Source of the DNA: JAFGIT01 sp016929465 [NCBI: Candidatus Coatesbacteria bacterium]
GTDB taxonomy: Bacteria; B130-G9
Assembly (NCBI GenBank): GCA_016929465.1
Contig: JAFGIT010000135.1
Coordinates: 1-16,333 of the forward strand
Direction of reading: 5' to 3'
DNA: 16,333 nucleotides
The notes beneath the pieces are model-generated. The model did no database searches, was not told the origin of the DNA, and worked only from the letters and a program-made list of their open reading frames with translations. Positions 1 to 12,257 of this stretch are shown here, one piece after another. A program made the position numbers and the translations under genes. How positions within the stretch are numbered: the stretch's first letter is position 1; the number at the start of each line of letters is the position of its first letter.

Positions 1-545
1 GCCAGGACGGAGGCGATTGCCAAGCGCTGTTTTTCGCCGCCGGAGAGTGCGGCAGGCTCTCTATTTTCGAATCCAGCAAGGCCGACGAATTCGAGGCACT
101 CCTTTATTCGGGCACGAATCTCACCCGGCTCGACGCCTAGGTTCTCTGGACCGAAGGCTACTTCCTGCTCGACGTTTGTCGAGAAGAGTTGGTTCTCGAA
201 CTCCTGAAATACAATCCCGACCGCACCCGCCAGTTCTGAAACCCCATGTTCTCTGGGTATCAGTCCATATACGTTGAGGGAGCCGGTCAATTCGCATCGT
301 TGGAAGTTCGGGATAAGGCCATTCAGGCACTTCAGGAGAGTCGATTTCCCGGCACCGGTGTGCCCGACCAACGCGACTGCTTCACCACGTTCGAGCTCGA
401 GATCGATCCCTTTGAGTGCTTGTGATTCGGAGCCTTGATATCTGACCGTCAGGCCTTCTGCTTCGACGATTAGATGGTGGTTATCGGACGGGTCCTGGGC
501 ATCCGTCCTCGGGCCTTCACCGCTGTCATTCACAGCATCAGACAT
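1..545 (-). CDS. ECF transporter ATP-binding subunit (EcfA-type), partial, C-terminus outside window
   Basis: ABC ATPase that would energise an energy-coupling-factor micronutrient transporter at the inner face of the membrane. Reading leftward from the ATG at 543-545, 181 codons are visible. They contain a Walker A GHTGAGKST (residues 61-69), a Q-loop VFQEFENQLF (112-121, the NQLF form typical of EcfA proteins) and the signature LSGGEKQRLAIA (168-179). Walker B, the D-loop and the switch His lie beyond position 1, so I cannot tell whether this is a single ATPase or a fused EcfA1-EcfA2. The first ~25 residues are a polar extension before the conserved fold. The ATG overlaps the 3' end of the S-component gene by 16 nt and lacks a clear Shine-Dalgarno. 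An in-frame GTG at 531-533 forms a GTGA overlap with that gene's stop and is an alternative start. Context supports co-expression with the upstream S component. Confidence 0.93.
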   Translation of the reverse strand, partial: MSDAVNDSGEGPRTDAQDPSDNHHLIVEAEGLTVRYQGSESQALKGIDLELERGEAVALVGHTGAGKSTLLKCLNGLIPNFQRCELTGSLNVYGLIPREHGVSELAGAVGIVFQEFENQLFSTNVEQEVAFGPENLGVEPGEIRARIKECLEFVGLAGFENREPAALSGGEKQRLAIASVL

Positions 546-1273
546 CCAATAAAGATGGCTGCAACGAAAGGCGTGACGATGAGTTTGATGCTCTCGGGGG
601 CTTGCCCAGCATTCAGCATCAGACCACATGCGAGGCCGCCCAATGCACCGGCTATGACCAGGAATGGACCCACAACCTGTGGCAAAAGCCCGCTTCGTGG
701 CTGGCGTTCGGGCATTATCTGCGAATGAAGAAGGCCCATGCGTGCGACGCGCTGAAATAAAAGCGCGAAGACAAAGGGATATAGGGCCGCCATAATCGTG
801 TTGTTGGTTGATATGGCCGATCCCAGGACCGCGAATGGGACCAAACCGAGCAAGTCAACTCCCCAGGCAATAATCACCCCACAGGAGACTGCCGCGAATA
901 CTCCGACGAGCATCTTTTGGAAGTAATTCGCGTTCGCTGGCAAGCTTCTGAAGATGTTCTGAAGGAGTTTATAGGGCAAATACCCGAGCATGAAGTTGCC
1001 GAGAAAGCCCGGAATGCTGCCCAGACCGAACATCCCGCCGAAGAGATCACCGACCACGTTGCCGATTGCTGCCCCCCACGCGGCGGCGGGGCCGAAAAGG
1101 AGCGAGCAGAATAGCGGGACGAGCGCAGCGGGCCTGATCTCAGTGAAGCCTGGCACCAGAATGAGCCCCTTGAATGGAAGCAGCAGGCATACATAGAGAG
1201 CTGCAATCACTGCTGTCAGGACGATCATCCTTGTATTCGCCCACATCGAGAAGAGCTCCCTGTTACCCGGCAT
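530..1273 (-). CDS. ECF transporter S component (substrate-binding membrane subunit), substrate unknown
   Basis: Integral membrane protein of 247 aa that should bind the vitamin or other micronutrient carried by the adjacent EcfA system. Hydrophobic segments lie at about 16-34, 45-70, 82-104, 121-150, 160-173, 197-220 and 230-247. The stretch IRPAALVPLFCSLLFGPAAA (46-65), followed by a Gly-rich GxxxGD segment, matches the 'RPA...llfGP..G...G' core of S components in the broad ECF_trnsprt/riboflavin-type families. The protein is longer than the usual 170-200 aa because of two extra C-terminal helices after a polar linker (~180-195). The start ATG at 1271-1273 overlaps the HD-GYP stop by 11 nt and has AAAGGA seven bases upstream. 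A second ATG at 1244-1246, with GGGAG nine bases upstream, is also possible. No substrate can be assigned: no riboswitch or biosynthetic neighbour points to one. Confidence 0.8.
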   Translation of the reverse strand: MPGNRELFSMWANTRMIVLTAVIAALYVCLLLPFKGLILVPGFTEIRPAALVPLFCSLLFGPAAAWGAAIGNVVGDLFGGMFGLGSIPGFLGNFMLGYLPYKLLQNIFRSLPANANYFQKMLVGVFAAVSCGVIIAWGVDLLGLVPFAVLGSAISTNNTIMAALYPFVFALLFQRVARMGLLHSQIMPERQPRSGLLPQVVGPFLVIAGALGGLACGLMLNAGQAPESIKLIVTPFVAAIFIGCLML

Positions 1274-2504
1274 TCATCTGTCCTTTCAACTCGCGGTATG
1301 CGTATGTCTTGAATGCTTTCACAACCTCGGGATCAAATTCATCACCCGCACCGTTCTCTATCAAATCGACTGCCTTCTCGAATGGCATGGGGTCTCGATA
1401 TGGTCTCTTGGAGGTCACCGCATCGAATACGTCAGCGACGGATATTATCCTCGAGCCGAGCGGCACTTCGTGCCATTTCAGTCCATCCGGATAGCCCTTG
1501 CCGGACATCTTCTCATGGTGATGAGCTGCGATGTGCGGGATTCCCTCCAGGCTCTTCGTGAAGGGTATCCGACGCAAAATCTCATAGGTCTGCTTTGCGT
1601 GCTCCTGAATGTGCATCCTCTCATGCTCGGTGAGGCGACCGGGTTTCCGCAGCACCTCATCGCGGACCCCGATCTTGCCTATGTCATGGAGCAGGCCGGC
1701 GAATCGGAGCTGGCGAAGTTCCTCCCCTTCGATCCCCATCTCCTTGGCGATGCCAACCGAGATATCGGTGACCCTCGCCGAGTGACCAGCTGTATAGGGG
1801 TCCTTAGCGTCGATCGCAGCCGCGAGTGACTCGAAGAACTTCTCCAGCATCGTCTCTTGTGCCTCGTATAGCATGGCGTTCTCGAGTGAAACGGAGGCGA
1901 AGGAGCCGAGCAGTCTTATCAGCCGCTCGTCCTCCTCATCGAACGGGCCGCCCGATTTATTCAGAACTTGCATGACCCCAATCACATTTCTCAGCTTGTC
2001 CCTCAGCGGGGCGGTAAGCATGTTTCTCGTGACATATCCGGTCAGTTTGTCGATGTTTTTGTCGAAGCGAGGGTCTGAATAAGGCTCGGGGATATTTATC
2101 AATTCACCGGTCATCGCGCATGCGCCGGCGATTCCCGAATCTATCGGGATTATGATCTCTTTGATTTCCAGCTGCGTGGCAATCATCGACTTCAGATGAA
2201 GCCGATCGACATCGACCAGGTATATCGTGCTTCGGTCCGCGTTCATGAGGCGCTTGCTCTTATCCAGAATCAGGAGCAGCAGCTCCTTGAGTCGGACCTC
2301 GGCCGATAGCATATAGCCAATGTGAATCAGCTCCGAGAGCCGGTCCACCTTCTCCTTCAATCGTTCTCGATCCAGGAATGCATCAGCGAGATACGTCCTG
2401 ATGTCGCCCTCGGTATGGAGCTGAGAGAGGTCGGATCGGAACGCCTCGGAAAGCGAGCTCTCTATGAGCTTTATGAAACTCTCAACCAATTGCTCGTTCG
2501 CCAA
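1263..2504 (-). CDS. GAF-HD-GYP domain protein, predicted cyclic-di-GMP phosphodiesterase
   Basis: Predicted cytoplasmic signalling enzyme that hydrolyses cyclic-di-GMP under control of a GAF sensor. From the TTG at 2502-2504 it is 413 aa: a helical N-terminus (1-60), a GAF domain (~60-210), and an HD-GYP domain (~220-405). The HD-GYP domain carries HDIGKIG (273-279), AHHHE (327-331), GKGYPDGL (335-342) and SVADVFDAVTSKRPYR (355-370), so the metal ligands and the GYP motif are intact. No membrane segment is seen. I chose the TTG because AAGGAGG ends five bases before it. In-frame ATGs further up (2558, 2543) have no Shine-Dalgarno, and the longest open frame would run into the SRP RNA gene. 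The stop overlaps the ECF S-component start, which implies translational coupling. The GAF ligand is unknown. Confidence 0.9.
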   Translation of the reverse strand: MANEQLVESFIKLIESSLSEAFRSDLSQLHTEGDIRTYLADAFLDRERLKEKVDRLSELIHIGYMLSAEVRLKELLLLILDKSKRLMNADRSTIYLVDVDRLHLKSMIATQLEIKEIIIPIDSGIAGACAMTGELINIPEPYSDPRFDKNIDKLTGYVTRNMLTAPLRDKLRNVIGVMQVLNKSGGPFDEEDERLIRLLGSFASVSLENAMLYEAQETMLEKFFESLAAAIDAKDPYTAGHSARVTDISVGIAKEMGIEGEELRQLRFAGLLHDIGKIGVRDEVLRKPGRLTEHERMHIQEHAKQTYEILRRIPFTKSLEGIPHIAAHHHEKMSGKGYPDGLKWHEVPLGSRIISVADVFDAVTSKRPYRDPMPFEKAVDLIENGAGDEFDPEVVKAFKTYAYRELKGQMNAG

Positions 2505-2533
2505 ATCTCCCTCCTTGTCATAAACTCGACGAG

Positions 2534-2563
2534 ATATTGCCATCACAATTGTGGCCATGTCAA
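2534..2563 (-). promoter_or_regulatory. Possible promoter of the HD-GYP/ECF operon with a palindrome in the spacer
   Basis: Reading minus, TTGACA (2558-2563) is followed after 18 nt by CAATAT (2534-2539), a weak -10. The spacer contains the perfect 10-bp palindrome CACAATTGTG (2544-2553), a plausible operator. A transcript starting here would carry the AAGGAGG and TTG start at 2504, which agrees with the chosen start. The -10 is poor, so this is tentative; readthrough from the SRP RNA promoter is an alternative. Confidence 0.35.
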
Positions 2564-2594
2564 CGAGAACGGCAGTCGGGAGGGGACAGCACGA

Positions 2595-2609
2595 ACGGTT
2601 CACAACCGT
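2595..2609. repeat. Short perfect inverted repeat ACGGTT-CAC-AACCGT in the HD-GYP leader region
   Basis: Six-base arms with a three-base loop, in the gap between the SRP RNA and the HD-GYP gene. There is no T-run, so it is not an intrinsic terminator. It could be a small hairpin in a readthrough transcript or a protein site; function unknown. Confidence 0.35.
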
Positions 2610-2674
2610 CAGGCAGAGATGCGGGGACTCCTGGCAAAACGGAGGAGATAAAAATACTGAATAAGCCAGAAAGA

Positions 2675-2940
2675 GCCGTGCACCCACCTTTGACCGTAGG
2701 CCCCCGCGTGCCAATCGCAGCCAGCTCCAGCCAGGCGGCCCTGCGGCACACGAAAGGGTCTGCTTACCGCTGCTCCCTTCCGGGCCTGACGGGGTTCACA
2801 GATTCTCGTTGCGTAGGACCCAGCCTTCAACACCGCTTACGATGGTCAGACCAGATAACCTGCCGGCCGGGGGCGGGAATTCGACCCTGCTATAGCGGAT
2901 TGCAGGTTCAGGGCACCGCTGGCTCCCCGTCTAGCACGGC
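2675..2940 (-). ncRNA. ffs: Signal recognition particle RNA, long bacterial form with Alu domain
   Basis: RNA core of the signal recognition particle, which binds Ffh and targets nascent membrane and secreted proteins. The minus strand holds the near-invariant domain IV hairpin: GTCAGGCCCGGAAGGGAGCA lies at 2771-2790, with its GGAA tetraloop at 2778-2781, followed by GCGGTAAGCAG. The 5' part has the Alu-domain hallmarks GCCGTGCTAG...GGGGAG, GGTGCCCTGAACC, then GCAATCCGCTATAGC and GTCGAATTCC. The 5' end GCCGTGC (2934-2940) pairs exactly with GCACGGC (2675-2681), which closes the molecule at 266 nt, the expected length for the long bacterial class (Bacillus scRNA type) rather than the ~100-nt E. 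coli 4.5S type. It starts about 11 nt after the C25 peptidase stop. A T-rich patch (TATTTTTAT) lies ~16 nt beyond the 3' end, with no strong terminator hairpin apart from the closing helix itself. Confidence 0.96.
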
Positions 2941-2951
2941 TTTTTTTGGCT

Positions 2952-5132
2952 CTATTTAATAAATAGGCAGCTCCCACCAAGATTACTACAAGGCTCGAGC
3001 GTCTCCGGATCGAACAGCATTATATAGAACGCATTGGATCCATCCGGACAGACAGATGTATCGATTGTGGTCAGCTCGTAATTCTCGAGTGCAAAACCGG
3101 ACTCGAGCGTGAAAGGTATCAGATTGAGCCCCGATGTCCAATCCGGGTAGCTGAATACTTCGCCCTGTGCGGAGACGAATGCTATCGCAAATAGCACCTC
3201 CCGGGCCCCCTCATTATTCATACAGGTGATCTCCAGCCCGACGTTCCTGTTCGGGTAGGAGAATCTCGGGACGGAAAGACCGACATGAATCGGTGGCTCG
3301 AGCGGTTGAACCGGACCGCCGATCTGGAGCGATGGATCGCCGAAAGAGACGTATTCCATCACCGTCTTCACGTCGTAAACCGACGGCGACCACCAGCTAT
3401 TAATATAGCCCTCGAGACCCTTCAGGAACATCTCACCGACCGAGCGGTGACCGTCCTTATACGCCTTCAACATCAAACGGCTCAGCTTAGCGGCGTAGTA
3501 GAGATTCCAACTGGTGCCGGATCCGGCTCCATACGCAACGCGAGTGGCCCCGGTATAGGCGATGGCGCCGCCATCGACGCAGTTCAAGAACTGCTCGCCA
3601 ATGCTATCGCCTATCGACGGGAACTGGGGATGCTCCCAATTCTCATTGTCGAAACCAGCAGTCTCGCATGATGGCGCGGTGATGAACGGCATCACATCGG
3701 CATTCGTGAGATCAGATATCTGATCCGAGAACAGGTAATTCCCCATACCAAAGGCAAATGCTTCGTAAGTGCCATGCCCGATGTAGGTCGCAAAACCGCA
3801 ACCTTCATTGATATGGCTGATAACGCTGCGATCGGACAGCGAGGCATTGCGATCAAAGGTAGTGGTGGTATAGAGCCTTGCGACCGAATAATTCGAGAAT
3901 ATGTCCGATGCAAGCTGCTCGCACGCATATTCACCTTCCGCGTCAGGCCCGGAGATAACAGAACCGCAGAGGACAGCCCGTTCGAAATTCGGCGAATTCT
4001 CGTCGATGTTGAGCTCATAATTAATTATCTGCGAGACCATGATGCCGAGATCGACCGCCCTTCCTGCCGGCAATCTCGAGAACATGACATCAGGCATCAA
4101 GTCAACGTGGTCCGCGTTGGGTTGGGAGGAGGAAGACTCACCATAGATTCCGTCTCCATCCGTATCCCATGTGCAAAGGACACCATCGCTATCAAAAAGG
4201 TCAGCATAGTAGAGGTCGGCTGGAACAAGGCGACCGTCCGTCACATTCGAGTAATCGTCGTAGTTGTCGAATACTTCGGCGTATCGCACCGGGAATAGGT
4301 CCGCATCTCCTACCCCGAGGACGTATCGGGTCCCGTGGTCTTTGACGTGCTCCGATATGAAGTACTTCAGCTTGGCTGCGTCGTCCTCTCCGAATGGATT
4401 TGCGATCGCATCCCCGAGGGTCACTAGAACTGTCCTTACTCCCAGGAGATTCTTATGTGTCACGAATCCTGTGAGGATGTCTGCAAACTCATCCGGAGCG
4501 ATTATCAGCAAATCCCACACATCATCGTCACCGTCCTTGGTGCGGCGGTCGTTCTGGACCTCATCCGTATAGGAAATGCCTATAACTGCAGATCGAAGCG
4601 ACTGCGCCTTCATCTCATCCGCGAGATACCTGACGGGATATATGCACACGGTGACGAACTTCTTGAAATTCCAGTCCTCGACATCGCGGCCGCCGCTGAC
4701 ATACATCCGTGCCCAATCAGCTGGAAACCACGCTGAGGCGACGAAATCGGGATTCGTTTCGGGCGTGAATAACGCCGGGTCTGCGAGGGGCATGGGGCCG
4801 TCTGAGACCTGAATTGGGCTCGCGAGAGTCAATTCGTCGAATTCGGCATTCTCTATGCTCAGTTCAGTTATCCTTGCTGTGTATGGCAATTTCAGGCTTA
4901 TCGTCTTGTAGGGCAGCCGCGGCGTTTCGACCGCCTCGATGATCTGCTCGCATCCTCGGACTTCGATTGACTGAGAAGCGCCAACCTGAGTCAGAACGGG
5001 TCGAGAAAACTCGACAAATACTCTTGCCGAGTGATTCGGATCAGCTGCATTAGAATCCGCAACGCAAATTGCAGCGAATACGGAAATCAATGCCGCCAAC
5101 ACCAAAATTATGGTTCTATGTCTTGCTATCAC
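2952..5132 (-). CDS. Secreted gingipain-type cysteine peptidase (peptidase family C25)
   Basis: Predicted exported endopeptidase of 726 aa. The start is GTG at 5130-5132 with AGGAG eight bases upstream. Residues 1-~28 form a signal peptide (basic MIARHR, then a hydrophobic core, Ala-rich cleavage region). An N-terminal beta-rich region runs to ~200, then the C25 fold ~205-605. That fold contains the two hallmark catalytic blocks: ATYIGHGTYEAF with His453, and ITAPSCETAGF with Cys489. DTDGDGIYG (323-331) looks like a calcium-binding loop. A C-terminal beta domain (~610-726) follows. I see no obvious C-terminal type IX sorting motif and no LPXTG or membrane anchor, so simple Sec export is the default inference. 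The gene follows hrcA by 55 nt and may be partly co-transcribed with it. Substrate preference (Arg or Lys) cannot be read. Confidence 0.88.
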   Translation of the reverse strand: MIARHRTIILVLAALISVFAAICVADSNAADPNHSARVFVEFSRPVLTQVGASQSIEVRGCEQIIEAVETPRLPYKTISLKLPYTARITELSIENAEFDELTLASPIQVSDGPMPLADPALFTPETNPDFVASAWFPADWARMYVSGGRDVEDWNFKKFVTVCIYPVRYLADEMKAQSLRSAVIGISYTDEVQNDRRTKDGDDDVWDLLIIAPDEFADILTGFVTHKNLLGVRTVLVTLGDAIANPFGEDDAAKLKYFISEHVKDHGTRYVLGVGDADLFPVRYAEVFDNYDDYSNVTDGRLVPADLYYADLFDSDGVLCTWDTDGDGIYGESSSSQPNADHVDLMPDVMFSRLPAGRAVDLGIMVSQIINYELNIDENSPNFERAVLCGSVISGPDAEGEYACEQLASDIFSNYSVARLYTTTTFDRNASLSDRSVISHINEGCGFATYIGHGTYEAFAFGMGNYLFSDQISDLTNADVMPFITAPSCETAGFDNENWEHPQFPSIGDSIGEQFLNCVDGGAIAYTGATRVAYGAGSGTSWNLYYAAKLSRLMLKAYKDGHRSVGEMFLKGLEGYINSWWSPSVYDVKTVMEYVSFGDPSLQIGGPVQPLEPPIHVGLSVPRFSYPNRNVGLEITCMNNEGAREVLFAIAFVSAQGEVFSYPDWTSGLNLIPFTLESGFALENYELTTIDTSVCPDGSNAFYIMLFDPETLEPCSNLGGSCLFIK
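2953..2980 (-). promoter_or_regulatory. Putative SRP RNA promoter inside the 3' end of the C25 gene
   Basis: Reading minus, TTGGTG (2975-2980), 16 nt, TAAATA (2953-2958). It places the start in the A-run at about 2941-2947, a few bases before the mature 5' GCCGTGC. A dedicated promoter is expected because the RNA is nearly contiguous with the upstream peptidase gene. Confidence 0.4.
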
Positions 5133-5156
5133 TAAGATCTCTCCTGAATCTCTATA

Positions 5157-5184
5157 AGGTTAATCTGGGCCGGAACCCTGTCAA
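5157..5184 (-). promoter_or_regulatory. Possible promoter for the C25 peptidase in the hrcA-C25 gap
   Basis: Immediately after the hrcA stop the minus strand has a consensus TTGACA (5179-5184). It is followed after 16 nt by TAACCT (5157-5162), a poor -10; TATAGA lies 22 nt away, too far. This would give the peptidase its own transcript. The -10 is weak. Confidence 0.3.
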
Positions 5185-5187
5185 TAA

Positions 5188-6228
5188 TCATCTTGAAAGC
5201 AGTCGACTCATCAACTTCGACGTAAAATCTACTATTGCCATTAATCTAGCATATTGCATCCGCGTCGGTCCTAAAACACCAACAGCGCCGAGCACTTTGT
5301 TGTTGCATCCGTAAGAACCTGCAACAAGTGAACAATCATCTAGCTCCTGCAGGTCACATTCTTTGCCGATAAATATCTTCGGCCCGCCGCCTGAGAGGCA
5401 CTCGTTCAGTATTCTCACGAGCCGGGACTTCTCGTCCATCGCCTTCAGGAGGCCCTTGAGTCGCTCGAGATCGGAGGTCCTCTCATTATGGATTATATTC
5501 TGTTTGGCGCCGACATAGACCTTCTCCGCCTCTTCCCTGGTAGGAAAGGCCTCCTTCGATATACGTAGAGCTAGATCGAGCAGAAGGTCAAAATGACGCC
5601 TCTCATCCTCCATCTGGGCCTGAACCTGCTCCCGGATCCTCAAGAGGGAGTGGCCCTTGAAACGGTCATTGACCAGGCGAGAGAGCTTGTCCAGCTGCTC
5701 CTGAGAAATCACCTCATCGAGCGTTATGATCTTGTTCGTGATGATTCCATTCTCGGCAACAATGACCGCGAGGATTCGGCGATCGTGAACGTGCACGAAA
5801 TCAACGTGCCGACATATAATCCCCGATAGGTCTATGAGTGAGACGATCCCCGTCTGCTTGGTGAATGTCGAAAGGAGTTCGGAGGTCTGCTTTAAGAGAA
5901 AGTCTATCGAGAGCGACGTGTCATCCCCGTAGTGCTCGGAGATCATATCCCTCTCGGCCTGAGTAAGAGCCTCCCCTTGCATCAGGTAATCGACGAAATA
6001 CCGGTAGCCCTTGTCCGTCGGAATGCGACCCGAGGACGCGTGAGTCTGGCCTATATAACCCTCGTCCTCCAGGTCAGCCATTATGTTCCTTATCGTCGCC
6101 GGGCTGAGACCGAGATCGGTGACCTTGGAGGCAGTCCTGGAGCCGATGGGCTCATTGGTGTCTATGTAATGCGCGACAACGCTTTTCAAAACCTCTCGCT
6201 GCCGCGGATTCAGGCTTTCGCGATTCAT
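5188..6228 (-). CDS. hrcA: Heat-inducible transcription repressor HrcA
   Basis: DNA-binding repressor that in other bacteria binds CIRCE operators to hold down groESL and dnaK operons until heat shock. The 346-aa length fits the family (~340). The winged-helix N-terminus (1-~75) includes LNPRQREVL, YIDTNEPIGSRT, LSPATIRNIMADLEDEGYI and HASSGRIPTDKGYRYFV, all strongly diagnostic. The GAF-like and inserted dimerisation domains follow (FTKQTGIVSL; a C-terminal VGVLGPTRMQYARLMAIVDF). The ATG at 6226-6228 is preceded by GGAAGAAG. The usual partners grpE, dnaK and dnaJ are absent here; nth lies upstream and a C25 peptidase downstream. I find no good CIRCE (TTAGCACTC-N9-GAGTGCTAA) in its leader, only a one-sided resemblance, described separately. 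Confidence 0.97.
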   Translation of the reverse strand: MNRESLNPRQREVLKSVVAHYIDTNEPIGSRTASKVTDLGLSPATIRNIMADLEDEGYIGQTHASSGRIPTDKGYRYFVDYLMQGEALTQAERDMISEHYGDDTSLSIDFLLKQTSELLSTFTKQTGIVSLIDLSGIICRHVDFVHVHDRRILAVIVAENGIITNKIITLDEVISQEQLDKLSRLVNDRFKGHSLLRIREQVQAQMEDERRHFDLLLDLALRISKEAFPTREEAEKVYVGAKQNIIHNERTSDLERLKGLLKAMDEKSRLVRILNECLSGGGPKIFIGKECDLQELDDCSLVAGSYGCNNKVLGAVGVLGPTRMQYARLMAIVDFTSKLMSRLLSR

Positions 6229-9039: not shown

Positions 9040-10299
9040 TCAGGAGCCTTCTATTACAGAACGAAAGCGCCTCAGCATTCTCGAAAGCGTGCACCCGGCA
9101 AAGAGACAGATGAACGGATACAAAGGAATGCTATATCTGGACAATGAGCGAGTCAGAACATAACCGGACCAGAAGTAGAGGATGAACAGCAATGTGAGAG
9201 GTACTATCCCACCGCCGGTTCTCCTGCAGAATACCAGTGCGGCAATTGCCATGATAACATAGAGGAGATTCTGCAGCACGCCGGTCCATACAATCGCCCT
9301 TGCTCGTCTGGGGCCAATGACCACGTTGTATGCAATGTTGTCTAAGAGCGACAGCCTTGGGTAATCAATGAATATAATTCCGGTCTTGAGTAGTGCTCGC
9401 CTGGGCAGATCGGACAAGTTCTTGATGAACACCCGCTTCCCCTCCTCGAAGAAGTATCTGTTTCGCTCTATCCAGCCCATCTTCTCCGCCTTCTCGAAAA
9501 CCTCGGGGGACAGCGCTGGTTTCGCGATACCCTCCGGTGGCACGAGTTCCTCATCCGCACCGGTCAGGAAGTTGAAGCCAAAGAGCGTGCCGGTTGGAAT
9601 GAATGCATCAAACCTGATGTAATTTCTGATTATCCAGGGAGCGATGACGGCGAGGAATGCCGCGACAGCAACGGCAGATAGCGCCAACTTCCTTCTGAAA
9701 GTGACCCTTGTGAACATGAGCAGGCCGACTACGAGTATCACTACCATTTGGGCTGCCGACTTGCACATCGTCGCGATGCCTAAGATTGCTCCTGCGGCCA
9801 ATGCCCAGCCGATGTTCATCTTCTCCAGCAGCTGCAGGATGATAACGACCGACACGCCGATGAGAAATGCGAAAAGCGTATCCGGATATAGCACCCCGCA
9901 ATGCACCGCAGACGGCAGGTGAAGGGCGAGCAGCATTGCGCCCAAAAACGCCGCCCACGAGTCGTTGAGGTATTTTCTGCCAAGATAGAACACGATGAGA
10001 GATAGAGAAGCTGACAGCAGGATGTGTGCAGCGACGACCGCCTTATTCGAATCGCCAAAAATGGCATAGAGCGCGGCGATAAAATAGCCGTAGAGCGGCA
10101 CTCTTATGGGCAGTTCGGGCTCTCCTGGAGCCGATGCATTCAACAGATTTCCATCACGAATGTTGCGGGCCATGTTCACGTATTCGCTGGCATCCAGAAC
10201 TGCGGGAGGTATTCCGAAGAATGTCACGAAGGCCACCCTTGCGAGTACTGCGACGGAAAATATCAGGATAACGGCAGTGATCGGCTTGATTGAGGTCAT
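9040..10299 (-). CDS. GT39-family (GT-C fold) membrane glycosyltransferase
   Basis: Predicted polyprenyl-phosphate-sugar-dependent transferase of 419 aa acting at the outer face of the cytoplasmic membrane; its acceptor is unknown. The first membrane helix is followed by a periplasmic loop, LDASEYVNMARNIRDG (35-50), and then RVPLYGYFIAALYAIFG (66-82). This D...Y...A...R-P-Y arrangement is characteristic of the ArnT/PMT-like GT39 group. About ten further hydrophobic helices follow. A central soluble segment (~250-300) and a C-terminal RYSIPLYPF, a common GT39 end motif, are also present. The ATG at 10297-10299 overlaps the upstream DUF2079 stop as ATGA, so the two are translationally coupled. 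Nothing in the sequence assigns a sugar. Confidence 0.8.
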   Translation of the reverse strand: MTSIKPITAVILIFSVAVLARVAFVTFFGIPPAVLDASEYVNMARNIRDGNLLNASAPGEPELPIRVPLYGYFIAALYAIFGDSNKAVVAAHILLSASLSLIVFYLGRKYLNDSWAAFLGAMLLALHLPSAVHCGVLYPDTLFAFLIGVSVVIILQLLEKMNIGWALAAGAILGIATMCKSAAQMVVILVVGLLMFTRVTFRRKLALSAVAVAAFLAVIAPWIIRNYIRFDAFIPTGTLFGFNFLTGADEELVPPEGIAKPALSPEVFEKAEKMGWIERNRYFFEEGKRVFIKNLSDLPRRALLKTGIIFIDYPRLSLLDNIAYNVVIGPRRARAIVWTGVLQNLLYVIMAIAALVFCRRTGGGIVPLTLLFILYFWSGYVLTRSLSRYSIPLYPFICLFAGCTLSRMLRRFRSVIEGS

Positions 10300-12113
10300 T
10301 CCGGACTCACGCCTTTCCTGTGGAAAACATATATCGGCCCTTCCTGATAGATGAGATCGAAACCATCGAGCGAGCTAGTATTCTTGACCGTCTCGACGAT
10401 TGGCGTCTCCCACCAGGTAGTGATTTTGGCGACATCGACAATTGCGTATTGAACGGCCCCCGGCGCAAGAGCATTCTCACCAAGGAAGTAGACCTCATTC
10501 CTGGATGCGAGGTGAGGGAGCATGTAGCGCGGAGCCGTCGCCGGAACATGAGAGGGGACCATCTCCAATGCAGCTTTCTGCGCGTCGAAATATGGGTCCT
10601 TCTTCATTTTGAATGCCCCCCACCAAACGGGAGTGTAGATGACTGCAATCACGAATGCCAGAACCGCAAGGGAGAGCGACAGCATACGTCGCCCACCGCC
10701 CCCTATTCTGGCTATGGTCACGGCAGTTGCCGGAGCGAAACACGACGACGGGAGAATCCCGTGGTGGAATGTGATTGGGACCTCCCAATTCATCAAACCG
10801 CAGACTACGAACGCCGGGGCCAATCCCATTAGAGAATAAAGACTCCCGAATGGGAGCAAGAAGAAAAATGGCGCGAACATATAGAAGGCCAGTTCCTGCT
10901 TCGCGACCTGGGATAGGTTATCCAGCAAAATCGATGGATTCCGAAGCGTCTCCATCGCAAGTCCAGAAATGGACCGGATGTATGGGTAACGGACAACCAT
11001 CATGTTATCTGCCGCCCGGAAATTCGGGAATAGGATCGCGAAAACGAGAACAATCCACAGGATGTTGACGACAGCGGGAGCGATAATCCACTTCCTGGCC
11101 CTTCGCTGCAGCAAGGCGAGCACCGGGAACATCAGCATGATAAAGGGGACGTTTTCCTTCAATCCGCTGCTGAGGACCATGAAAGTCATGAACCAACCGA
11201 ATCGCCCACGCTCGAAGAAATAGATGGAAGCCGGCATCAGTAGCGTTGCGAAGATTATAGGATGGAAGCCGGTGTAATTCTGTGCGATGGCCGTTGGGAT
11301 GAGAAGATAGGCGACTGTAAGAAGCAAACTCTCCAATGCTTTGAGGCGGGTCCTCACTAGGGCGAAGAATGGCACAGCTGCAAGGCCCATGATGAGAGTC
11401 TTTATGACCAAGAACACTGCTGCTGTCCTGAAAATGAGGAAGAACGGGAGGACAATCAGCTTGGTCGGCGCGAAGTGGTCTCCGATCAGCTCATACGTCT
11501 GGCCCCCGGATTGAGTATGCAATCTCGACAGGAAGAAGTGGCCCTGCGAGAAGCTATACTGTGCGGTCGTGAACCTCGAGAGGTCATGCCAATTGCCGAA
11601 GATGTAAAAGTCCCAGAGCCCGGTTGCCAGGAAGAATGCTATGTAGAGAGCGACGATGCCGGCCAGGATCCTGATCCTGTTCCTTTCTATTAACTGGTCG
11701 ATTCGGGCGCGGCGATCGGAATCGAGCTCAATCCGAATGAAAAGCCCCGCCGCGAGAATCAGGCCAAATAGAAATGCTTTGGGACCCAGATTGTCGATAT
11801 ACGATGAGAAATACGCCCTCTTCGATGCGCCGAAATGTGGCATGAAGAGCGGAATCGTGATCAGGGCAAATGCCGGAATTAATGTCAGCCCCACATCTCC
11901 TCCAATGCCTTCTCGGGAGTGGGGAGCCGCCGGTCTTGCAGAAAACCTGCAAAGCGCGGATGTGAGAATCGCGCCGGCAAGCGCAAAGAGTAGCGTCCTC
12001 CAGGGCGAAGGCATCCCTGCGCAGACACCGGGGAAAAACCAGGCGAAATACGCACCGATCACGGCGCCGGCGAGGCCGGAGATCATCAGACCAACTCTAT
12101 CAATCTGTCTCAT
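10296..12113 (-). CDS. DUF2079 family polytopic membrane protein, GT-C-like
   Basis: Large membrane protein of 605 aa from the ATG at 12111-12113, with more than ten hydrophobic helices. The DUF2079 landmarks are present: the loop FTTAQYSFSQGHFFL (181-195), GDHFAPTKLIVLPFFLIF (211-228, the H-F-S/A-P motif), YTGFHP (280-285), and GLKENVPF (317-324, the K-E motif). The C-terminal ~120 residues form a soluble tail. The family is uncharacterised but related to GT-C glycosyltransferases, and pairing with the GT39 gene fits a role in envelope or lipid-linked glycosylation (inference). The start is uncertain. The ATG lacks a Shine-Dalgarno, TTG at 12129-12131 has TAGGA five bases upstream, and the frame stays open to a TTG at 12185. 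Confidence 0.8.
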   Translation of the reverse strand: MRQIDRVGLMISGLAGAVIGAYFAWFFPGVCAGMPSPWRTLLFALAGAILTSALCRFSARPAAPHSREGIGGDVGLTLIPAFALITIPLFMPHFGASKRAYFSSYIDNLGPKAFLFGLILAAGLFIRIELDSDRRARIDQLIERNRIRILAGIVALYIAFFLATGLWDFYIFGNWHDLSRFTTAQYSFSQGHFFLSRLHTQSGGQTYELIGDHFAPTKLIVLPFFLIFRTAAVFLVIKTLIMGLAAVPFFALVRTRLKALESLLLTVAYLLIPTAIAQNYTGFHPIIFATLLMPASIYFFERGRFGWFMTFMVLSSGLKENVPFIMLMFPVLALLQRRARKWIIAPAVVNILWIVLVFAILFPNFRAADNMMVVRYPYIRSISGLAMETLRNPSILLDNLSQVAKQELAFYMFAPFFFLLPFGSLYSLMGLAPAFVVCGLMNWEVPITFHHGILPSSCFAPATAVTIARIGGGGRRMLSLSLAVLAFVIAVIYTPVWWGAFKMKKDPYFDAQKAALEMVPSHVPATAPRYMLPHLASRNEVYFLGENALAPGAVQYAIVDVAKITTWWETPIVETVKNTSSLDGFDLIYQEGPIYVFHRKGVSPE

Positions 12114-12257
12114 GCTTATTTTAACAGGCAACCTATTCCTAATTTGAAGCGCTCGATGTCCTACGTCGAACAAATAGATGCACAAGCTTCCTGAAAAGCT
12201 AGGTCAGTGTCAATATGTCCGCTGAATTATCGATCGGCGGAGAGGACTTGGCGTCCA

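What the first reader, a model, noticed from the sequence alone, without database searches (positions are those of the whole stretch)
530..2504. Cyclic-di-GMP phosphodiesterase translationally coupled to an ECF transporter
The HD-GYP stop overlaps the S-component start by 11 nt, and the S-component stop overlaps the EcfA start by 16 nt (or 4 nt with the GTG). Stop/start overlap across three genes suggests matched expression of a GAF-sensing c-di-GMP phosphodiesterase and a micronutrient uptake system. That raises the possibility that c-di-GMP level or the GAF ligand is tied to the imported compound. The S component is also longer than usual, with two extra C-terminal helices.
Basis: partly seen in the sequence, partly recalled or inferred. 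Interest (0 to 1): 0.6.

Follow-up and report, generated by a model that had tools for sequence, protein, structure and literature searches.

The report
Signalling enzyme leading a transporter operon
In one small bacterial family, a gene for a signal-degrading enzyme (GAF plus HD-GYP) sits first in what looks like an operon for a vitamin-type importer and overlaps the next gene by 11 bases; one relative has lost the enzyme but kept the importer, so the two seem to be expressed together without the importer needing the enzyme.

Summary
The observation largely holds. A GAF-HD-GYP gene (1263-2504, minus strand) overlaps the start of a QueT-like ECF S component (530-1273) by 11 nt, and a Shine-Dalgarno-like AAAGGA lies inside the HD-GYP tail. 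EcfA follows, but its start is ambiguous and its overlap with S is not conserved. The second half of a fused EcfA1A2 and EcfT lie on contig C387. A second genus (G002) keeps HD-GYP and S with an 11-nt overlap. Upstream neighbours differ, but a TTGACA-N18-CAATAT-like element precedes HD-GYP in both, so promoter-HD-GYP-S-EcfAA-EcfT behaves as one unit. In a third genus (G001) the transporter genes are intact, and only a decayed HD-GYP remnant lies between that element and S, with the 11-nt overlap kept. Outside the family, 0 of 25 S loci with upstream sequence have an HD-GYP. Best reading: a lineage-specific operon that co-expresses a c-di-GMP (or cGAMP) phosphodiesterase with an importer of unknown substrate. 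The enzyme is dispensable for keeping the transporter. The proposed GAF-ligand link is untested. The extra C-terminal helices are a trait of this S family.

The parts
2534..2563 (-). promoter-like element TTGACA-N18-CAATAT, TG before the second hexamer
   Evidence: The same pattern lies at the 5' end of the locus in G001 and G002. It has 3 hits in 354,352 bases (both strands; the window and 35 loci of the four family genomes, some of which overlap), all three at this operon. The pattern was written after seeing the three sequences. The generic scan does not list it: its second hexamer matches TATAAT at only 3 of 6, below that scan's rule of 4.
1263..2504 (-). GAF + HD-GYP phosphodiesterase (413 aa, TTG start)
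   Evidence: Pfam GAF 3.2e-16 and HD_5 5.1e-42; best solved relative PmGH 4mcw, E 1.7e-72; 7 of 8 PmGH metal ligands plus D183, K225 and GYP kept, E185 is Tyr
1263..1273 (-). 11-nt overlap of HD-GYP stop (TAA) and S start (ATG)
   Evidence: ATGCCGGGTAA; GTGCCGAGTAA in G002; TTGCGCAGTAA in G001
1281..1286 (-). AAAGGA, Shine-Dalgarno-like, 7 nt before the S start, inside the HD-GYP coding region
   Evidence: read directly
530..1273 (-). QueT-like ECF S component with two extra C-terminal hydrophobic segments (247 aa)
   Evidence: Pfam QueT; family alignment A1; hydropathy
3..545 (-). EcfA 5' part, cut by the contig end; first half of a fused EcfA1A2 (start 545 or 533)
   Evidence: TIGR04520 E 9.7e-43, 146.5 bits for the fragment against a whole-protein cut-off of 315; the fused G001 chain matches here and on G000:C387, where the second half and EcfT (PF02361, 1e-31) lie

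Best explanation
This is a lineage-specific operon. A promoter just downstream of the SRP RNA gene drives HD-GYP, S, EcfA1A2 and EcfT. Ribosomes finishing HD-GYP stop 11 nt inside the S cistron, whose ribosome-binding site lies in the HD-GYP tail, so S is made in step with the enzyme (inferred from anatomy, not measured). The HD-GYP protein most likely hydrolyses c-di-GMP (or 3',3'-cGAMP) under control of its GAF domain (inferred from kept residues). S, EcfA1A2 and EcfT import a small unknown, QueT-like substrate (inferred from family). Shared expression lets a nutrient-scavenging state and a lowered second-messenger level be set together (inference). The enzyme is an accessory of the operon that the transporter can do without.
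For: HD-GYP (71% aa identity) and S (62%) adjacent with an 11-nt overlap in G002. Upstream genes differ: SRP RNA in the window, a polysaccharide flippase in G002. DNA matching the SRP RNA-C25 peptidase-HrcA block lies on other contigs than the ECF genes in G001, G002 and G003. Promoter pattern at this locus in three of three genera that hold S. Both genes under constraint: pN/pS 0.26 (HD-GYP) and 0.34 (S) between window and G002, dS saturated. Catalytic residues kept. GGDEF proteins in 4 of 4 family genomes. G001: decayed HD-GYP between promoter element and S, overlap kept. S, EcfAA and EcfT stand together in other phyla.
Against: The whole phylum held is four genomes, and the intact pair is seen in only two. 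Other neighbours in the window also stay together in G002 (C25-HrcA, endonuclease III-NosD, PMT-DUF2079), so conservation of the HD-GYP/S pair is not exceptional. The -10 hexamer is weak (3 of 6) and the generic scan does not list the promoter. The G002 protein does not find the G001 remnant above shuffles (25 of 500 reach it). No expression data. Transporter substrate and GAF ligand are unknown. G003 is inconclusive.
Confidence: 0.7

Rival explanations
1. Functional circuit: the GAF domain binds the imported compound (or a product of it) and switches the phosphodiesterase, so that uptake is reported as a change in c-di-GMP.
For: Adjacent with the same overlap in two genera, both genes under constraint. 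GAF domains bind small molecules (recalled).
Against: G001 keeps the importer and lost the enzyme. 0 of 25 S loci outside the family with upstream sequence carry an HD-GYP. No shared ligand is known: no Rfam riboswitch in the 20 S loci given to the search, and the family has its own tgt and queC.
Confidence: 0.12
2. Incidental neighbours: HD-GYP came to lie in front of an existing ECF module in an ancestor and sits there for transcription or translation only, with no shared physiology.
For: S, EcfAA and EcfT stand without HD-GYP elsewhere. Enzyme lost in G001 with promoter element, start and overlap kept. Other neighbours in the window are also conserved in G002.
Against: Kept across two genera at 62-71% identity with a preserved junction although 5' synteny has changed.
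Confidence: 0.3
3. The S component is a queuosine-precursor (preQ1/queuine) importer and the operon is a queuosine salvage unit.
For: Pfam QueT above its cut-off in 5 of 5 S proteins scanned (one, four).
Against: QueC over nearly its full length and Tgt occur in 4 of 4 family genomes (G000's Tgt in two pieces on two contigs), so they appear to make preQ0 themselves; the other pathway genes were not searched. The window S and the G002 S also score for the riboflavin S family. No NCBIfam hit for S.
Confidence: 0.15

Closest known systems
PmGH (Persephonella marina GAF-HD-GYP, PDB 4mcw)
   Same: Same GAF + HD-GYP order, aligned over residues 57-398, E 1.7e-72; 7 of 8 metal ligands, D183, K225, GYP and D308 kept
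   Different: E185 (a metal ligand) is Tyr, as in the PYTAGHS motif of V-cGAP3 (5z7c), so a two-metal site is more likely (inference); about 55 extra N-terminal residues; sits in front of ECF genes
QueT / QrtT-type ECF S components (PF06177)
   Same: QueT domain over residues 17-164, above the Pfam cut-off
   Different: 247 aa with two further C-terminal hydrophobic segments, seen in 6 of 6 aligned homologues; substrate unknown
ECF transporters with dedicated S, EcfA and EcfT genes in one locus ('group I', recalled)
   Same: S, EcfA1A2, EcfT in order in G001
   Different: The two ATPases are one chain; an HD-GYP gene leads the locus in two genera only

Membership tests
HD-GYP phosphodiesterase | HD...GYP domain homology | tested here: met
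   PF13487 E 5.1e-42, profile positions 3-170 of 170
HD-GYP phosphodiesterase | metal ligands and catalytic Asp/Lys | tested here: met
   7 of 8 PmGH ligands plus D183 and K225; E185 is Tyr. In PmGH the E185A mutant keeps reduced activity (PMC4159591, passages)
HD-GYP phosphodiesterase | hydrolyses c-di-GMP or 3',3'-cGAMP | not testable with these tools
   GGDEF proteins exist in the genome, so the substrate is plausible
ECF S component (QueT family) | homology to PF06177 | tested here: met
   50.9 bits against a cut-off of 33.7
ECF S component (QueT family) | transports queuosine precursors | not testable with these tools
   own Tgt and QueC argue against need
ECF transporter | EcfA ATPase(s) and EcfT with the S component | tested here: met
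   EcfA start in the window; other half and EcfT on G000:C387. The join between contigs C264 and C387 is inferred from G001
Translationally coupled gene pair | stop/start overlap with ribosome-binding site in the upstream gene | tested here: met
   11 nt in the window, in G002 and behind the remnant of G001; AAAGGA 7 nt before ATG in the window
Translationally coupled gene pair | downstream translation depends on upstream translation | not testable with these tools
   needs a reporter assay

The most novel reading that the evidence does not exclude
The GAF-HD-GYP protein is the sensor of the imported compound: uptake by this QueT-like ECF importer changes c-di-GMP level through the co-made phosphodiesterase. 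Searches listed no paper on such a link; one search (c-di-GMP with ECF transporter) listed two, of which I saw only the listing. G001, which lost the enzyme but kept promoter element, leader start and junction, would be a natural knock-out of the signalling arm.
Probability: 0.1. Interest if true: 0.6.

Novelty: new member of a known kind. Interest (0 to 1): 0.32.

Why it matters
If true, it gives a testable case in which uptake of a micronutrient and turnover of a bacterial second messenger are set by one transcript, with a natural enzyme-loss variant as control. Otherwise it shows how an enzyme can be lost from the head of an operon while the junction that starts the next gene is kept.

Tried and rejected
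AlphaFold of the S component with two sequences gave mean pLDDT 41.7; discarded and not used for the helix count. The helix claim rests on hydropathy of six homologues.

Substrate from riboswitches: Rfam at its gathering scores gave only the SRP RNA in the window, nothing in the five loci and nothing in the 20 S loci. Substrate from neighbours: besides S, EcfA and EcfT, the only gene cluster found in more than three of the 26 sequences compared (25 loci and the window) was one of membrane glycosyltransferases, in 5; two of its five members were scanned and are PMT_2. An aminotransferase and a GNAT protein follow EcfT in G229 and G089; only the G229 copies were scanned. No clear substrate. No PDB relative of S at E up to 1.

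The idea that S is a queuosine salvage transporter was lowered by Tgt and QueC in 4 of 4 family genomes.

G003 (same genus as G001, 83% complete): no S hit, but an EcfT fragment at a contig end (87%) and the glycosyltransferase flank without HD-GYP or promoter pattern before the contig ends. Treated as inconclusive.

Remnant control: with a permissive frameshift alignment the window protein scored 137.4 against 500 shuffles with maximum 134 (reversed protein 105.4), but the score of the G002 protein (119.1) was reached by 25 of 500. Stronger support is tblastn of the first 60 aa over 29 S loci, E up to 5: only the window, G002 and G001 match (G001 E 1.1e-4), at the expected place; the last 40 aa do not find the G001 remnant, and their only other matches are two weak ones in L081.

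The generic promoter scan of 1-5400 found one site, on the other strand, against 3.7 expected, and not the element I describe.

Relation of the organism: the phylum held has four genomes. I did not name it. Genome-wide rates of 11-nt overlaps were not measured.

Full report
What is there. The window is one whole contig, G000:C264, of a 423-contig genome that is 86% complete. On the minus strand, in order of transcription: the large bacterial SRP RNA (2939-2676, 209.9 bits), a promoter-like element (2563-2534), a GAF-HD-GYP gene (2504-1263), a QueT-like ECF S component (1273-530) and the start of EcfA, cut by the contig end. HD-GYP begins at TTG 2504 behind AAGGAGG (2516-2510). S begins at ATG 1273, so that it overlaps the end of HD-GYP by 11 nt, behind AAAGGA (1286-1281) (read). 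EcfA may begin at ATG 545 or GTG 533; neither has an evident ribosome-binding site (my reading).

The rest of the transporter. The homologous locus in G001 (same family) shows S, one fused chain with two ABC ATPase domains, and EcfT (PF02361). The second half of this chain and EcfT of the window's genome lie on contig C387 (8-922 and 980-1756), and most of the chain and EcfT of G002 on C53. That C264 and C387 join is inferred from G001.

Conservation of the pair. The phylum held has four genomes in one family. G002 carries HD-GYP (71% identity) and S with GTGCCGAGTAA, again an 11-nt overlap. Its 5' neighbour is a polysaccharide flippase, and no SRP RNA lies in the 15.5 kb read there. DNA matching the SRP RNA-C25 peptidase-HrcA block lies on other contigs than the ECF genes in G001, G002 and G003; in the G001 and G003 loci read, the promoter pattern is absent, and no HD-GYP match lies on that G001 contig. 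So HD-GYP has stayed with S while the sequence 5' of its promoter element differs. As a caution, C25-HrcA, endonuclease III-NosD and PMT-DUF2079 are also still near each other in G002, so adjacency by itself is not rare between these genomes.

Promoter. TTGACA-N18-CAATAT, TTGACA-N18-CAAGAT and TTGACA-N18-CAGTAT, each with TGG before the second hexamer, precede HD-GYP in the window, HD-GYP in G002 and the remnant in G001. The pattern has three hits in 354,352 bases of both strands from 36 sequences of the four genomes (the window and 35 loci, some overlapping), all three here. It was written after seeing these sequences. The second hexamer matches TATAAT at 3 of 6 in each, so the generic promoter scan does not list it.

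Loss of the enzyme in G001. G001 (95% complete) has no match to the HD-GYP protein above 40% identity, the best being over the HD-GYP domain alone. Between the promoter element and S lie 252 nt of open frame (stop included) that start TTG within the same GAGATTTGG, match HD-GYP residues 6-39 (44% identity, E 2e-6 in the 390-nt stretch; E 1.1e-4 over 29 S loci), and then, in order, short weak pieces (E 0.1-0.2 each in the 390 nt) like residues 152-161, 382-397 (another frame) and 401-410. The frame ends TTGCGCAGTAA, again 11 nt into S if S starts at that TTG; an ATG further upstream in the S frame exists too. This reads as a gene that lost its GAF and HD-GYP domains but whose ends stayed. The open frame through the pieces may be chance or kept for starting S. 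A permissive alignment control favours the remnant with the window protein (0 of 500 shuffles reach it) but not with the G002 protein (25 of 500).

Outside the family. The S profile finds 25 of 386 genomes in one domain-wide sample and 22 of 290 in a second, overlapping sample that adds three loci. With L007 (an Armatimonadetes MAG) these are 29 S loci, a weak second hit in G043 set aside. Twenty-eight have at least 1263 nt of upstream sequence; one (G105) has none. An HD-GYP profile at E up to 1 hits 2 of 29, the window and G002. Outside the family it is 0 of 25 with upstream sequence. S with EcfAA and EcfT, without HD-GYP, is the more widespread arrangement.

The proteins. The HD-GYP protein matches PmGH (4mcw) over GAF and HD-GYP, E 1.7e-72. 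D183, K225, the GYP residues and 7 of 8 metal ligands are kept; E185 is Tyr. In PmGH the E185A mutant keeps reduced activity (PMC4159591, passages), and V-cGAP3 has the same PYTAGHS motif (alignment), so activity is likely and c-di-GMP or 3',3'-cGAMP is the probable substrate (inference). GGDEF proteins are present in 4 of 4 family genomes. Both genes evolve under constraint (pN/pS 0.26 and 0.34 between window and G002, dS saturated). The S component has two extra hydrophobic segments at its C-terminus, as do all six aligned homologues, so this is a trait of the S family and not of this operon. Its substrate is open: QueT is the Pfam name, but Tgt and QueC occur in 4 of 4 family genomes.

Reading. 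Shown: overlap, conservation in two genera, remnant in a third, shared promoter-like element, absence of HD-GYP in the 25 outside loci. Inferred: one transcript, coupled translation, phosphodiesterase activity, transport. A ligand circuit between GAF and the importer stays possible and untested. Searches for papers with HD-GYP + energy-coupling factor + c-di-GMP, with c-di-GMP + ECF transporter, and with HD-GYP plus five further terms found 0, 2 (seen only as listings, with 36 and 1 mentions of c-di-GMP and one mention each of ECF transporter) and 0. Overlapping, translationally coupled pairs as such are well described (listing).

Noticed in passing
2676-2939 (-): Large bacterial SRP RNA gene (209.9 bits) next to a C25 peptidase and HrcA; DNA matching this block is found in all four family genomes, apart from the ECF genes in the other three.
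   Followed up: partly
2952-5132 (-): Peptidase family C25 (gingipain-like) protein, weakly like PorU sortases of type IX secretion, below the curated cut-offs.
   Followed up: no
9040-12185 (-): A DUF2079 membrane protein gene followed by a PMT_2 glycosyltransferase gene with a 4-nt overlap (10296-10299); matching DNA of both lies close together in G002.
   Followed up: no
L086:7052-12441 and L089:7929-13312: In G229 and G089 two genes (184 and 1612 aa in G229, no Pfam match in the G229 copies) precede the same S-EcfAA-EcfT module.
   Followed up: partly
G000:C180 and G002:C236: A second Tgt-like protein below the family cut-off in two of four genomes; in G000 a GGDEF protein lies about 1.8 kb away on the same contig.
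   Followed up: no
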